Below, in pieces: positions 17,535-22,526 of a DNA stretch of 64,000 bases. The first letter of the stretch is position 1; each line of letters opens with the position of its first letter. The position numbers were made by a program, and so were the translations under genes. Below the pieces are notes generated by a model. That model saw nothing but the letters and a program-made list of their open reading frames with translations, searched no databases and was not told the DNA's origin. Origin of the DNA: Deltaproteobacteria bacterium (GTDB taxonomy: Bacteria > Myxococcota > Myxococcia > Myxococcales > 40CM-4-68-19); NCBI GenBank assembly GCA_005879535.1, contig VBKI01000049.1, forward strand, positions 1-64,000, given 5' to 3'.

Positions 17535-17583
17535 AGGTCGTTTCCTGTCTTAGAGGATTGAAAACAACCGTAAGCACGTCAGC

Positions 17584-18117
17584 TCAGCGAAGGTAGCGTA
17601 AGCGGGCGAGCGAGATCAGGGCCGCCCCTACTGCGGCGCCGAGCGCCCAGCCGGCGATCACGTCGGTGGGCCAGTGCACGCCGAGATAGACGCGGGAGAC
17701 ACCGACGAGCAGCGCCAACCCGATGCCGATCGGCGAGAGCCGCGGAGCCGCCCAGGACAAGACCACCGCCGCAGCAGCGGTGTCGCTCGCGTGCGTCGAG
17801 GGAAACGATTGCCCCGCACCACAGCCGAGCGGGTGCGGCACCCGCGCGGGATCCGCGTTGCAGGGACGGACCCGGCCGAACTCTGGCTTCACCACCCGGA
17901 CGCTGAGAAGGTCGGCGACGCCAATCGCCGCCCAGAGGAGGATGGCGGCGAGCGCGCGGTGGGGCGACTTGATCCAGAGGTAAATGGCCGCAAGCGCCGC
18001 CACGGCAAGAAGAACTCCGCGATTCGACGCCGCCCCCATCACGGCGTCGAGCCACCCCACGCCGGGGCGGTTCAGCAGCGAAAGCAGCTGCAGGTCGATG
18101 ACGGGGGGCGCGACCAA
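17584..18117 (-). CDS. PAP2-type membrane phosphatase
   Basis: The product has 177 residues and several hydrophobic helices. All three phosphatase signature parts are present in order: KPEFGRVRP (KX6RP), FPSTHASD (PSGH-type, with Thr for Gly) and [13 protein letters not shown] (SRX5HX3D). The Arg-His-Asp triad is complete. Relatives dephosphorylate undecaprenyl pyrophosphate, phosphatidic acid or other lipid phosphates at the membrane. A short Cys-containing loop ([15 protein letters not shown]) between motifs 1 and 2 may form a disulfide outside the membrane (inference). It is divergent from the yggX-like gene. Confidence 0.88.
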
Positions 18118-18241
18118 CCTGAAAACCGTAGCACTTACCGGGCGCTGGCAGGAAGGCGATCGACCGCTTCACAGCCTGCCCGCCCGCAGGCACGCCGGCG
18201 CACGGGGTTGGGTTATACAGGTCGCCCACACGGGAGTTCGC

Positions 18242-18520
18242 ATGCCGCGGATGGTGAAGTGTGCAAAGCTCGGGAAGGAGCTCCCGGGCCTCGACTTCAA
18301 GCCCTGGAACAACGAGCTGGGGCAGCGCATCTACGAGACCATCTCCCAGGACGCATGGAAGATGTGGCTCGAGCACTTCAAGATGGTCATGAACGAGTAT
18401 CGGCTGGCGGGCGGGTCGGAGCAGGCAAACCAAGTGCTCTTCGATCAGGCCGAGAAGTTCTTCTTCGGCGAAGGCGCGCAACTTCCGCCGGACTACAAGC
18501 CGCCCGCAGCGAAGGGCTGA
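18242..18520 (+). CDS. yggX: YggX-like probable Fe(2+)-trafficking protein
   Basis: From the ATG at 18242 the product has 92 residues, the usual size. It starts [20 protein letters not shown] then [20 protein letters not shown]. This is the YggX signature with the single conserved Cys near the N-terminus and the 'W..W' helical core ([17 protein letters not shown]). YggX protects iron-sulfur enzymes from oxidants in enteric bacteria. The radical SAM gene starts 3 bases after its stop, so the two are almost certainly co-translated. That pairing makes sense because radical SAM enzymes need an intact 4Fe-4S cluster (inference). Confidence 0.9.
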
Positions 18521-18523
18521 GGA

Positions 18524-19867
18524 GTGCGCGGGCCGGGCGAGATCCTCGTCGTTTCCTGTTACGAGCTCGGCCGGCAGCCGGTGGCGGCAGCCGCGGCGAT
18601 CGCGGCTCTCGAACGCGCGGGCTTCTCGCCGGCAGCCCAGGACATCTCGGTCGAGAAGCTTTCCATCGAAGCGCTGGCCAGGGCGCGCCTCGTGCTCATC
18701 AGCGTCCCCATGCACACCGCGTTGCAGCTCGGCGTTCGCGTCGCCGCCAAGGCGCGCGAGGTGGGCGGGTGCGTGGCGCTGTTCGGCCTCTACGCGACGC
18801 TCAACGCGGAGCACCTGCGCGAGCGGCACGGCGATTTCGTCGCCGGAGAGAACCCCGACGAGCTCGTCGAGCTGGCGCGCGCGATGGAGGCCGGGCGGGA
18901 ACCGGCGCCCGTCGCACTTCGCAAGCGCGACGTGGCGGTCCCGTCCCGCGCGTCGCTCCCGCTGCTCGACCGGTACGCGAAGCTCTCCTGGAACGGCGAG
19001 GAGCGGCTGGTCGCCTCCGTCGATGCCTCGCAGGGATGCAAGCATCTCTGCCGGCACTGCCCCATCGTTCCCGTGTATCGCGGCCGCTTCGTCGCCGTGC
19101 CGCGAGAAACCGTGCTGGCCGACGTCGCACAGCAGATCGCCGTGGGGGCACGGCACGTCAGCTTCGGGGATCCGGACTTCCTCAACGGCCCGACGCATGC
19201 GCTGCGGATCGTGCGCGAGCTGCACGCGCGATGGCCCGAGGTCTCGTTCGACGCGACGATCAAGATCGAGCACTTGCTCCAGCACCGGGCGCTGCTCGCG
19301 GATCTCGCGCAGTGCGGGATGATCTTCGTCACCAGCGCGGTCGAATCGCTCAACGACCGGGTGCTCGCGGCGCTGCACAAAGGTCATGTCGCCGCAGACG
19401 TTCCCGAGGCTCTCAGGGCCGTGCGCGAGGCTGGAGCAGAGCTGCGGCCGACGCTCTTGCCATATACGCCCTGGACCGCTCTCGAGGATTTGCCGGCGCT
19501 CTTCGACTTCGCGGTCGAGCACGACCTCGTCGACGCCATCGATCCCGTCCAGTACACCCTGCGTCTGCTGCTTCCCCCAGGGTCTCTGCTTCTGGACGAC
19601 TCGGGGCCGTGGCTGCGCGGCTTCGACGCGGACGCCTTCACGTGGCGTTGGGAACATGAAGACCCGAACGTCGACGCTCTCTGGCGCGAGTCGGCCGAGC
19701 TGGCGCGCAAAGGCGCCGGATTCGACGAGCTCCGCGCGGTCGCCAACCACGCCTCCCGGCGGCAGACCGCAGCGCGCGCGCCGCGGCGCCGCAGGAGCGT
19801 GCCGCGCCTGACGGAACCCTGGTTCTGTTGAGCAGAGCCCACCGCCGGCCAGTTCGGCCGGATCTAA
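18524..19867 (+). CDS. Radical SAM protein with B12-binding-like N-terminus and a Cys-Sec-Ala-Glu-Pro tail (selenoprotein)
   Basis: GTG start at 18524, with GAGGA-type bases overlapping the yggX stop region. Residues 1-110 resemble a cobalamin-binding-like Rossmann domain. The radical SAM cluster is at Cys172, Cys176 and Cys179 (GCKHLCRHCP). A conventional reading stops at TGA 19829-19831 after RLTEPWFC. The same frame continues sensibly through AEPTAGQFGRI to TAA at 19865-19867. This fits the 'CUAEP/CCAEP-tail' radical SAM family, where the TGA encodes selenocysteine (residue 436, next to Cys435). A 6-bp hairpin begins 13 bases after the TGA. With read-through the protein has 447 residues. 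Substrate unknown. No selenocysteine machinery genes are in the window. Confidence 0.85.
19832..19861 (+). promoter_or_regulatory. Putative bacterial SECIS element
   Basis: Downstream of the in-frame TGA, CCGGCC (19845-19850) pairs with GGCCGG (19856-19861) around the five-base loop AGTTC. The stem begins 13 bases after the TGA, close to the spacing of known bacterial SECIS hairpins, and the loop contains a G-T pair of the type SelB recognises. It also lies inside the coding extension, as bacterial SECIS elements must. Confidence 0.65.
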
Positions 19868-21141
19868 GTCACGGAGAGCCTGGGCGTCACCACCGCCTCG
19901 ATGCGCGCGGCTGCCTGGCGCAGCGCCTGTTCGACCTGCTCGGGCGTGTCGCCGCGCGCGAAGGCGAAGCCGAGATACGACGCTCCCTCGGGCAAGGGAA
20001 CGAGCTCTTCGCGCAGATGCGCGGTGATGGCGACGTCCTCGACGAGAGGCACATGCCGCGCCTCCTCGACGCCGCGCACCTCCTCCAGCACGCCGCGCCG
20101 CCGGATGGGCAGCATCACCACGCCGGAAGCACGTTTCTCGCGGGGAGGGGGGTCGCCGGTCATGCCCAGCGCATGCCGGAGGATCAGCTCCTCCAGCGTC
20201 ACGCCGACGCCGAACCGCAGCGCGCGGCCGCAGAGGCCGCCAATGCTGCGGGCCGCGATCTCCAGGATCCGCGGACCCGACGGCGAAAGGCGCAGCTCGG
20301 CGTGGACCGGCCCCTCGGCGAGCCCGAGCGCGGCGCAGCCGCGGGAGACCTCGCGCGCGATCGCGTCCTGCAAAGGCGCCGGGTGCCGGGAAGGGGTGAC
20401 GTAGATCGTCTCCTCGAAGTACGGACCGTCCAGTGGGTCCGGCTTGTCGAAGATCGCGAGGGCATGCAGGTGGCCGCGCATCAGGAGGCCTTCCAGCGCC
20501 ACCTCGGGTCCCGGGACGAACTCCTCGATCAGCACGCGCTCCAGGTCGGCATCGCGCCGTTGCGCGACGTCCGGCGAGCTCAGCAGCGCCGCAACCCGTT
20601 TCAGGGCAGCGCGTAGCGCTTGCGGATCGTCGGCGCGGATCACGCCGCGGCTGCCCGAGAGAACGAGCGGCTTCACCACGCAGGGGTAGGGCGCTCTTTG
20701 CAACAGCGCCTCCAGGTCGTCCCCGCCGATGTCCCGGGACGCCACTTCGAAGCGCGGCACCGCGACGTCGGCGTCGCGCATCTTCGCCCGGCTCAGCGCC
20801 TTGCTTCGCGCCGCCGCGACCGCTTCCGCCGGATTGTGCGGAAGCCGCAGCCTCGCCGAGGTGAGGGTCGCGACGAGAGCAGTCAGATCGTCCACCCCGA
20901 TCACGGCCACCGGTTTGCGCTCCCGTACGGCGCGCGCGAGCTCGTCGGCTGCTGCCTGCGCATCGCGGAATCGCAGCGCCACCGGAGCCGCCGCCCACTC
21001 GTCCGCGAGCTGGTGGCAGACGTCGCTCGCTACGATCACCTCCGCGCCGAGCCGCTTCGCCGCCGCGAGAAAATCGTCGTTGCGGTAGCCCGACTTGGGT
21101 AGGACCAGGACTACGGCGGGAGGCATGGCGCCGGGAATCAT
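19864..21141 (-). CDS. ATP-grasp domain protein
   Basis: The product has 425 residues (a second ATG at 21126 is possible). The N-terminal domain begins AVVLVLPKSGYRNDDFLAAA, a pre-ATP-grasp Rossmann-like part. The ATP-grasp core shows PYPCVVKPLVLSGSRGVIRA (ATP-binding Lys and Gly/Ser loop), VLIEEFVPGPEVALEGLL, VHAELRLSPSGPRILEIAAR and SIGGLCGR (metal-binding Glu and Asn-like positions). Such enzymes ligate a carboxylate to an amine or thiol, as in peptide or amino-acid ligases (BL00235/carbamoyl-phosphate-synthase-like group). It converges on the selenoprotein gene, with the stops overlapping by 4 bases. A functional link with that gene is possible but unproven. Confidence 0.85.
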   Translation of the reverse strand: MIPGAMPPAVVLVLPKSGYRNDDFLAAAKRLGAEVIVASDVCHQLADEWAAAPVALRFRDAQAAADELARAVRERKPVAVIGVDDLTALVATLTSARLRLPHNPAEAVAAARSKALSRAKMRDADVAVPRFEVASRDIGGDDLEALLQRAPYPCVVKPLVLSGSRGVIRADDPQALRAALKRVAALLSSPDVAQRRDADLERVLIEEFVPGPEVALEGLLMRGHLHALAIFDKPDPLDGPYFEETIYVTPSRHPAPLQDAIAREVSRGCAALGLAEGPVHAELRLSPSGPRILEIAARSIGGLCGRALRFGVGVTLEELILRHALGMTGDPPPREKRASGVVMLPIRRRGVLEEVRGVEEARHVPLVEDVAITAHLREELVPLPEGASYLGFAFARGDTPEQVEQALRQAAARIEAVVTPRLSVT

Positions 21142-21221
21142 AACCGCGATCTCGGTCAGCGATCGGATGTTCTGCGATCCGTGGGTTCGCTAAGGTGATC
21201 GCGACCTGAAGCGGAGACGAC

Positions 21222-22526
21222 ATGGAAGCGATCCTTGCGCTCGCGGACCGCGTGACGGCAGACTCTCCGCGCGAAGCGCCAGCACCCCAGCCGCTCGCCT
21301 TGCACTTCCCTGGGGGAGTGATCGGACTGCAGAGCACCGTATCGGTCGGAGCCGACACCACCAACCAGGTGGTGCTCGAGGACCGCTACGTCTCGCGCTT
21401 CCATTGCCGGCTGTTGCCGCACGGCGGACGCTGGCTCCTCAAGGACCTGGCCTCGACCAACGGCACATTCCTGGACGGCGCCCGCATCGCGGAGGCCGAC
21501 GTCGACGCCGGCGCGAGAATCCGCGTCGGGTCGGCGGAGCTGCGCATCGAGGAGACGGCACCGCGGCTGCAGGCCACGCTTCCCGGCCTCGTCGCGCGCG
21601 ATCCGGCGCTCGCTCCCGTGCTGGAACTGCTCCGCCGGGCCGCTCCGTCGTCCCTGCCGGTGACCATCCTGGGCGAGAGCGGCACCGGCAAGGAGGTGGC
21701 GGCGCGGGCCCTCCACGAGCTCTCCGACAGGAGCGGAGGTCCGTTCGTGCCGTTGAACTGCGGCGCCATCTCCCGCGAGCTGGCCGAGGCGGAGCTGTTC
21801 GGACATGAAAAAGGCGCGTTCACCGGCGCCATCACCAGCGCGCCGGGCGCGTTCGGCGCCGCCGACGGCGGAACGCTCTTTCTCGACGAGATCGCCGACC
21901 TGCCCTCGAGACTACAGGTAACGCTCTTGCGCGCCCTCGAGGCCGGCGAGGTGAAGCCCGTCGGCGCGCCGAAACCCCGCTGCATCGACGTGCGCGTCGT
22001 GTGCGCCACGCACCAGGATCTGCGGTTGCGCATCCGCGAAGGCGCCTTTCGCGAGGACCTCTTCTATCGCCTCCGCGGCGTGACCCTGGAGCTGCCGCCT
22101 TTGCGCGCGCGTCCTCGCGACATCCTTCCGCTGGCCGAGCACTTCCTGCCTCCGGACCGGTCCTTCGCGCCCGACGCCCGGGCAGCGCTCCTCGCCCATC
22201 CCTGGCCGGGCAACGTCCGGGAACTCAGGCACGTCGTCCAGCTCGCATCCCTCCTCTCGGAAGCGCAGGTGATCCGGGCGTATGCGCTTCGATTCGACGA
22301 CTCGCCGCCGCGTGCCTGGGCGCCGCGCGTGTGCGAACCGGGCGCAACGGCTCCAGCCGAGTCCACTGTCGAGCTGCGCGGCCGTACTCTCTACGAGCTG
22401 GAGGAGCTGGCCATCCGCGCCGCTTTGGCGCGCCATGGCGGAAACCGCCGGGCGATCTCCGCGGAGCTGGGCATCGCCCGCTCGAGCCTGCTGCGCAAGC
22501 TGGACGCGCTCCGGCTGCGCGGATGA
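21222..22526 (+). CDS. Sigma-54-dependent activator with an FHA sensor domain
   Basis: The product has 434 residues. The N-terminal FHA domain (about 30-110) has [20 protein letters not shown] and [14 protein letters not shown], the phosphothreonine-binding loops. The central AAA+ domain (about 130-350) has GESGTGKE (Walker A), [10 protein letters not shown] (complete sigma-54 contact loop) and [12 protein letters not shown] (Walker B). A Fis-type helix-turn-helix ends it ([20 protein letters not shown]). There is no receiver domain, so activity is probably set by a Ser/Thr kinase, as in myxobacterial FHA activators. A GGAG-type site precedes the ATG. It is divergent from the ATP-grasp gene. 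The target operon is not identified. Confidence 0.93.

What the first reader, a model, noticed from the sequence alone, without database searches (positions are those of the whole stretch)
18524..19867. Radical SAM selenoprotein: in-frame TGA with a Cys-Sec-Ala-Glu-Pro tail
After ...LTEPWFC the frame meets TGA and then reads AEPTAGQFGRI to a TAA. A 6-bp hairpin begins 13 bases after the TGA. Known: a radical SAM family with CUAEP or CCAEP tails exists, in which the TGA encodes selenocysteine. A standard gene caller would truncate this gene by 12 codons and lose the catalytically suggestive Cys-Sec pair.
Basis: partly seen in the sequence, partly recalled or inferred. Interest (0 to 1): 0.82.

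Follow-up and report, generated by a model that had tools for sequence, protein, structure and literature searches.

The report
Selenocysteine-tailed radical SAM enzyme
A soil myxobacterium-like genome encodes an enzyme whose gene reads through a "stop" codon to add a selenium-containing amino acid at its tail; the enzyme belongs to an already catalogued but uncharacterised family, and it always sits with an iron-sulfur protection gene and almost always shares its genome with a peptide-bond-forming enzyme, which points to the synthesis of an unknown small molecule.

Summary
TGA 19829-19831 is in frame between WFC and AEPTAGQFGRI-TAA. Read through, the protein scores 564 bits against NCBIfam NF040546, "CUAEP/CCAEP-tail radical SAM (seleno)protein" (cut-off 500), a family already named by NCBI curators. 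The genome has tRNA-Sec, selA, selB and selD. In its phylum 30 of 195 genomes carry the gene: 29 have TGA and one has TGC (CCAEP). The hairpin after TGA meets the published bacterial SECIS rules and covaries (6 of 7 pairs change on both sides). In the TGC genome the hairpin is gone, and selA and a true tRNA-Sec were not found: a natural control. A Thermomicrobium member also has the TGA, and its RefSeq protein is truncated there.

New here: yggX lies directly upstream in 30 of 30 loci. An ATP-grasp ligase gene occurs in 32 of 34 genomes with the rSAM and in 2 of 161 without it, often at a distance. The nearest relative is ArsL (arsinothricin synthesis), which ends in a Cys-Cys tail (RCCLKC) and also often neighbours an ATP-grasp gene. 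Best guess: an ArsL-like enzyme whose Cys-Sec tail handles a soft substrate, making an amino acid that the ligase couples. The decoding is near certain; the chemistry is inference.

The parts
18524..19867 (+). CUAEP-tail radical SAM selenoprotein gene, GTG start to TAA, 447 residues with Sec at 436
   Evidence: NF040546 564.3 bits (cut-off 500), Pfam Radical_SAM 40.9 bits
19037..19060 (+). Radical SAM cluster motif C172-x3-C176-x2-C179 (GCKHLCRHC)
   Evidence: Invariant in all 28 aligned CUAEP and ArsL proteins
19826..19831 (+). Cys435 codon TGT and Sec436 codon TGA
   Evidence: In frame; both columns Cys/Sec in all CUAEP members, Cys-Cys in L044 and in the two ArsL-type proteins
19832..19864 (+). 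Coding tail after Sec: AEPTAGQFGRI
   Evidence: E and P invariant with synonymous codon variation in 31 distinct tails
19845..19861 (+). Bacterial SECIS hairpin: stem CCGGCC/GGCCGG, loop AGUUC, 19 nt between UGA and loop
   Evidence: Covariation; fits the bSECIS rules quoted in PMC13188914; MFE -12.8 kcal/mol
18242..18520 (+). yggX (Fe(2+) trafficking / oxidative damage protection protein), 3 nt upstream of the rSAM start, probable operon partner
   Evidence: PF04362 113 bits, NF003817 116 bits; only copy in the genome; directly upstream in 30 of 30 phylum loci
19864..21141 (-). ATP-grasp amide ligase (ATP-grasp_4 + LAL_C2), convergent; its stop TAG (19866-19864) overlaps the rSAM stop TAA (19865-19867) by two bases
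   Evidence: PF13535 96 bits, PF18603 56 bits; orthologue in 32 of 34 genomes with the rSAM, 2 of 161 without

Best explanation
The gene encodes a selenoprotein of the NF040546 family. UGA at codon 436 is decoded as selenocysteine by SelB and tRNA-Sec, directed by the hairpin 19 nt downstream (shown by comparative genomics, not by experiment; about 0.97). The product is a radical SAM enzyme with one CX3CX2C cluster, whose conserved Cys-Sec pair lies on a tail joined by a variable, probably flexible linker (shown from sequence). It works together with YggX, probably made from the same transcript, and with an ATP-grasp ligase found in the same genomes (linkage shown; joint function inferred, about 0.8). 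Most likely chemistry, inferred from its sister family ArsL (about 0.4): reductive cleavage of SAM with transfer of its 3-amino-3-carboxypropyl group, or another SAM-derived radical, to a soft acceptor held or reduced by the Cys-Sec tail. That would give an unusual amino acid, which the ligase joins to another amino acid or amine. YggX would shield the oxygen-sensitive cluster.
For: Family score 564 bits, over the cut-off. Complete Sec machinery. 29 TGA members and one TGC member in the phylum, plus a TGA member in Thermomicrobium. Hairpin covariation: 36 cells changed on both sides against 10.5 in shuffles, 0 of 500 reach it, and sliding the partner destroys it. Natural control: in G025 the codon is TGC and the hairpin is lost (-6.4 kcal/mol, folds worse than most shuffles); selA and any tRNA-Sec above the cut-off were not found there or in its congener G026. 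yggX directly upstream in 30 of 30. ATP-grasp co-occurrence 32/34 against 2/161, also at genus level 12/13 against 0/77. ArsL is the nearest other family: 280 bits against 47 for the next. ArsL-type proteins end in RCCLKC, also a vicinal Cys pair at the C-terminus, and three of the four ArsL-type loci read have an ATP-grasp gene nearby. ArsL is predicted to transfer the aminocarboxypropyl group to As(III), and arsL alone sufficed for hydroxyarsinothricin production in E. coli (PMC8552651).
Against: No experiment on any member was found. No tRNA-Sec above 50.2 bits was found in six of the 29 TGA genomes (G019, G021, G027, G029, G040, G042), although all six have selA; only 80 candidates per genome were scored, so these may be misses. 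G011 has a tRNA-Sec but no selA hit. The chemistry is by analogy only: Pfam scans of ten neighbouring window proteins gave no arsenic gene, and none is annotated within 10 kb in Thermomicrobium. The linker before the tail is about 30 residues longer than in ArsL.
Confidence: 0.88

Rival explanations
1. The Cys-Sec tail is a swinging redox arm, as in the C-terminal Gly-Cys-Sec-Gly of mammalian thioredoxin reductase (from my own knowledge): it forms and breaks a selenenylsulfide to reduce a substrate, a disulfide or the cluster, and does not bind a metalloid or take part in carbon transfer.
For: Adjacent Cys-Sec on a tail after a variable Pro/Arg-rich linker. YggX, an oxidative damage protection protein, is the constant operon partner.
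Against: The sister family ArsL has a C-terminal Cys-Cys but acts on arsenite, which suggests thiophile handling. No reductase partner was found linked to it.
Confidence: 0.3
2. The rSAM acts on arsenic (or antimony) as ArsL does and makes an arsinothricin-like compound.
For: ArsL is the closest other family over 7-395 of the protein; vicinal Cys in both tails.
Against: The ArsL score is 280, below the cut-off of 450; no RCCLKC tail; no ars genes seen next to it in the window or Thermomicrobium, whereas ArsL-type loci are full of them.
Confidence: 0.12
3. TGA is a true stop; the tail is untranslated or only leaky readthrough, and the functional protein ends at Cys435.
For: Standard gene callers end there; the RefSeq Thermomicrobium protein does.
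Against: Conserved AEP with synonymous codon changes, covarying hairpin, full Sec machinery, and the TGC member that continues through the tail.
Confidence: 0.02
4. yggX and the ATP-grasp gene are only historical neighbours with no shared function; the pattern reflects descent within two or three clades.
For: Most genomes with the rSAM come from two families (f1, f2) of one order, so the counts are not independent.
Against: Three further families (f5, f12, f13) fit; genomes inside the same families that lack the rSAM (genus g10, G026) also lack the ATP-grasp gene; the co-occurrence holds when the two lie on different contigs or about 10 kb apart, with no other gene conserved beside the ATP-grasp.
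Confidence: 0.15

Closest known systems
NCBIfam NF040546, CUAEP/CCAEP-tail radical SAM (seleno)protein
   Same: Full-length match over the curated cut-off, same tail motif, Sec or Cys at the same position.
   Different: Nothing of substance; this is a member. The SECIS covariation, the Sec-to-Cys case and the yggX/ATP-grasp links are additions.
ArsL (NF040542), RCCLKC-tail radical SAM protein of arsinothricin biosynthesis
   Same: Related over most of the length, CX3CX2C, shared DxDFxN and PW motifs, vicinal Cys at the C-terminus, ATP-grasp gene often nearby.
   Different: Below the ArsL cut-off; tail CUAEP, not RCCLKC; longer linker; no ars genes seen beside it; Sec in place of Cys.
Other radical SAM selenoproteins (TIGR04167 rSAM_SeCys; TrsS NF045646), listed in PMC13188914
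   Same: Radical SAM domain plus Sec.
   Different: Different families; no hit of this protein to either in the NCBIfam scan; that review does not list NF040546.
Mammalian thioredoxin reductase C-terminal Gly-Cys-Sec-Gly tail (own knowledge)
   Same: Adjacent Cys-Sec at a flexible C-terminus.
   Different: Unrelated protein and cofactor; a possible analogue in working only.

Membership tests
NF040546 CUAEP/CCAEP-tail radical SAM | HMM score at or above 500 bits over the length | tested here: met
   564.3 bits, profile 1-467 of 468
NF040546 CUAEP/CCAEP-tail radical SAM | C-terminal C-[U/C]-A-E-P tail | tested here: met
   CUAEP by read-through; conserved in relatives
NF040546 CUAEP/CCAEP-tail radical SAM | CX3CX2C cluster motif | tested here: met
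   C172, C176, C179 invariant
Bacterial selenoprotein | selA, selB, selC, selD in the genome | tested here: met
Bacterial selenoprotein | bSECIS: loop 3-9 nt, stem 4-16 bp, G in first two loop positions, 16-37 nt from UGA, MFE at most -7.5 (PMC13188914) | tested here: met
   Loop AGUUC, stem 6 bp, 19 nt, -12.8 kcal/mol; covariation
Bacterial selenoprotein | Cys homologue at the Sec position | tested here: met
   L044 (G025): TGC, CCAEPTEGQLKIAE
Bacterial selenoprotein | Selenium in the purified protein | not testable with these tools
   Needs protein mass spectrometry
ArsL NF040542 | HMM score at or above 450 bits | tested here: not met
   280.5 bits
ArsL NF040542 | RCCLKC tail | tested here: not met
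   Tail is WFCUAEPTAGQFGRI
ArsL NF040542 | ars gene context (arsM, arsR, arsQ) | tested here: not met
   No such gene in the Pfam scan of ten window neighbours, nor annotated within 10 kb in T. roseum; the other loci were compared by clustering only, not annotated
ArsL NF040542 | Aminocarboxypropyl transfer to As(III) | not testable with these tools
   Needs biochemistry

The most novel reading that the evidence does not exclude
A selenium-dependent relative of ArsL forms, with YggX and an ATP-grasp ligase, an unrecognised pathway in anaeromyxobacter-like bacteria. In it a C-terminal Cys-Sec pair presents a metalloid or other soft atom to a SAM-derived radical, and the resulting amino acid is built into a peptide-like natural product.
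Probability: 0.3. Interest if true: 0.75.

Novelty: new member of a known kind. Interest (0 to 1): 0.5.

Why it matters
The family is named in NCBIfam but I found no paper about it: three exact terms (CUAEP, CCAEP, NF040546) gave none in 5.39 million open papers, and the 2026 selenoproteome review that I searched does not list it. If the module is real, it offers a testable pathway: which soft element or substrate needs a selenol next to a thiol on a radical SAM enzyme, and what the ligase makes of the product. It also shows that public records, such as that of Thermomicrobium roseum, still truncate members at the Sec codon.

Tried and rejected
AlphaFold2 on three sequences gave mean pLDDT 50.7 with the tail at 25-28, so no structural claim is made. 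No PDB relative beyond MiaB at E = 0.05. No Rfam match for the hairpin. Single-sequence folding does not single out the hairpin. tRNA-Sec was not found on the Thermomicrobium megaplasmid; its chromosome is not held, so this is inconclusive. Two Haft papers on selenoproteins are not held. Two scripts wrongly reported 'no YggX' because a record-name clash emptied the query; one search is the corrected run.

Full report
OBSERVATION. The frame opened by GTG 18524 runs through ...RLTEPWFC (TGT 19826-19828), meets TGA at 19829-19831 and continues AEPTAGQFGRI to TAA 19865-19867. The described hairpin is there: CCGGCC-AGUUC-GGCCGG, 19845-19861, with 13 bases between it and the TGA. In single-sequence folding it is not exceptional for this GC-rich DNA (-12.8 kcal/mol, z -1.24, 21 of 200 shuffles as good). 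The case therefore rests on comparison.

IDENTITY. The read-through protein matches NCBIfam NF040546, CUAEP/CCAEP-tail radical SAM (seleno)protein, at 564 bits (cut-off 500). The next family is ArsL, NF040542, at 280 bits (cut-off 450), and then nothing above 47 bits. Pfam gives Radical_SAM only.

SELENIUM MACHINERY. The genome (5.16 Mb, 118 contigs, rated 100% complete) has tRNA-Sec (70.2 bits, anticodon TCA by ARAGORN), selB (302.7 bits joined), selA (500 bits) and selD (355 bits). selD itself holds an in-frame TGA in HGSG-U-ACK, the usual catalytic position (position from own knowledge).

RELATIVES. In 195 genomes of the phylum 30 exceed the family cut-off, with four more incomplete hits that stand far above the background. 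Of the 30, 29 have a single in-frame TGA at the same place and one, L044 of genome G025, has TGC. All carry C-[U/C]-[A/T/S]-E-P and then a short variable tail. Glu and Pro after Sec are invariant in protein while their codons vary. A further member on the Thermomicrobium roseum megaplasmid reads WFC-TGA-AEPLEDPSG...; its RefSeq protein stops at the TGA. That record is from another phylum.

SECIS. On 27 distinct sequences the stem (seven pairs) is paired in 92.6% of cells against 69.0% in shuffles; six of seven pairs have changes on both sides; 36 cells are doubly changed against 10.5; 0 of 500 shuffles reach the score, and sliding the partner by one to three columns destroys it. RNAalifold predicts the same stem unaided. 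Three TGA sequences (L021, L027, L034) with a shifted or different stem were left out of that alignment; each still has a hairpin with G in the first two loop positions. The window's hairpin meets the bSECIS rules as quoted in PMC13188914: 5-nt loop with G second, 6-bp stem, 19 nt between UGA and loop, and energy below -7.5.

NATURAL CONTROL. In G025 (TGC) the hairpin is gone: -6.4 kcal/mol, worse than 175 of 200 shuffles. SelA was not found in G025 or its congener G026, and neither has a tRNA-Sec over the cut-off. So codon, hairpin and machinery appear to be lost together. Caveats: G025 is 88% complete (G026 is 98%), and the tRNA search scored only 80 candidates a genome. Six TGA genomes also lack a tRNA-Sec above 50.2 bits although they have selA, and G011 has the tRNA but no selA hit.

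NEIGHBOURS. yggX (PF04362, NF003817; the only copy in this genome) ends 3 nt before the rSAM start. In all 30 phylum genomes over the cut-off yggX lies directly upstream on the same strand, mostly within 0-82 nt; one apparent overlap (L047) comes from an over-long start in my extraction and another (L048) is a 4-nt overlap. Thermomicrobium lacks it within 10 kb on either side. The convergent gene 19864-21141 (-) is an ATP-grasp protein with an L-amino acid ligase C-terminal domain; no NCBIfam equivalog reaches its cut-off, and weak hits include dapdiamide A synthase and BacD. Its stop codon overlaps that of the rSAM. Orthologues at E at most 1e-60 exist in 34 of 195 genomes. Of the 34 genomes with the rSAM (counting four partial hits) 32 have it, and of the 161 others only 2, both incomplete assemblies (G022, G043). 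By genus it is 12 of 13 against 0 of 77. Fisher values (6e-32; 5e-14 by genus) overstate the case because genomes are related, but five families fit and members inside these families that lack one lack the other. In several genomes the ATP-grasp gene lies about 10 kb away or on another contig with no other gene conserved beside it, so linkage by position alone does not explain the pattern.

HOW IT MAY WORK. ArsL, the sister family, is predicted to transfer the aminocarboxypropyl group of SAM to As(III), and arsL alone sufficed for hydroxyarsinothricin in E. coli (PMC8552651). ArsL-type proteins end in RCCLKC, so both families have a vicinal Cys-Cys or Cys-Sec pair at the C-terminus after a linker; MAFFT lines up the two pairs, but across a gap of about 45 columns, so positional homology is not proven. 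Three of four ArsL-type loci read have an ATP-grasp gene nearby (not). From this I infer a SAM-radical reaction on a soft substrate held or reduced by the Cys-Sec tail, then ligation by the ATP-grasp enzyme, with YggX guarding the cluster. The first part is shown only as far as domain and motif; the reaction, the substrate and the ligation are inference. No arsenic gene was found near the rSAM in the window or in Thermomicrobium, so arsenic is not my favoured substrate.

NOVELTY. The family and its Sec/Cys nature are known to NCBI's curators. Three exact terms for it gave no paper in the held library, and a 2026 review table of prokaryotic selenoproteins does not list it. Two relevant papers by Haft and co-workers are not held, so prior publication cannot be excluded. 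This window's gene is a new member; the constant yggX partner and the ATP-grasp co-occurrence are, as far as I could check, not described.

Noticed in passing
L014 1501-2433 (G000:C33:15304-16236): The genome's own selD has an in-frame TGA in ...HGSG-U-ACK, so selenophosphate synthetase is itself a selenoprotein.
   Followed up: yes
L050 9950-11458 (NC_011961.1, Thermomicrobium roseum megaplasmid): RefSeq protein WP_012643191.1, named CUAEP/CCAEP-tail, is truncated at the Sec codon; the DNA reads on as AEPLEDPSGPVASQVRMVDQPLR.
   Followed up: yes
G027:C41:15929-17161: The ATP-grasp orthologue of this genome has one in-frame TGA: a frame break, an assembly error or possibly another recoded codon.
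   Followed up: no
L051 1433-2665, L077 2477-3700, L078 7458-8774: ATP-grasp proteins lie close to RCCLKC-tail (ArsL-type) radical SAM genes on Alicyclobacillus, Priestia and Pantoea plasmids, which suggests that arsinothricin-like products are further built into peptides.
   Followed up: partly
window 17579-21364 (-): A 1261-codon open frame runs antisense across the whole rSAM gene; probably an effect of high GC, not a gene.
   Followed up: no
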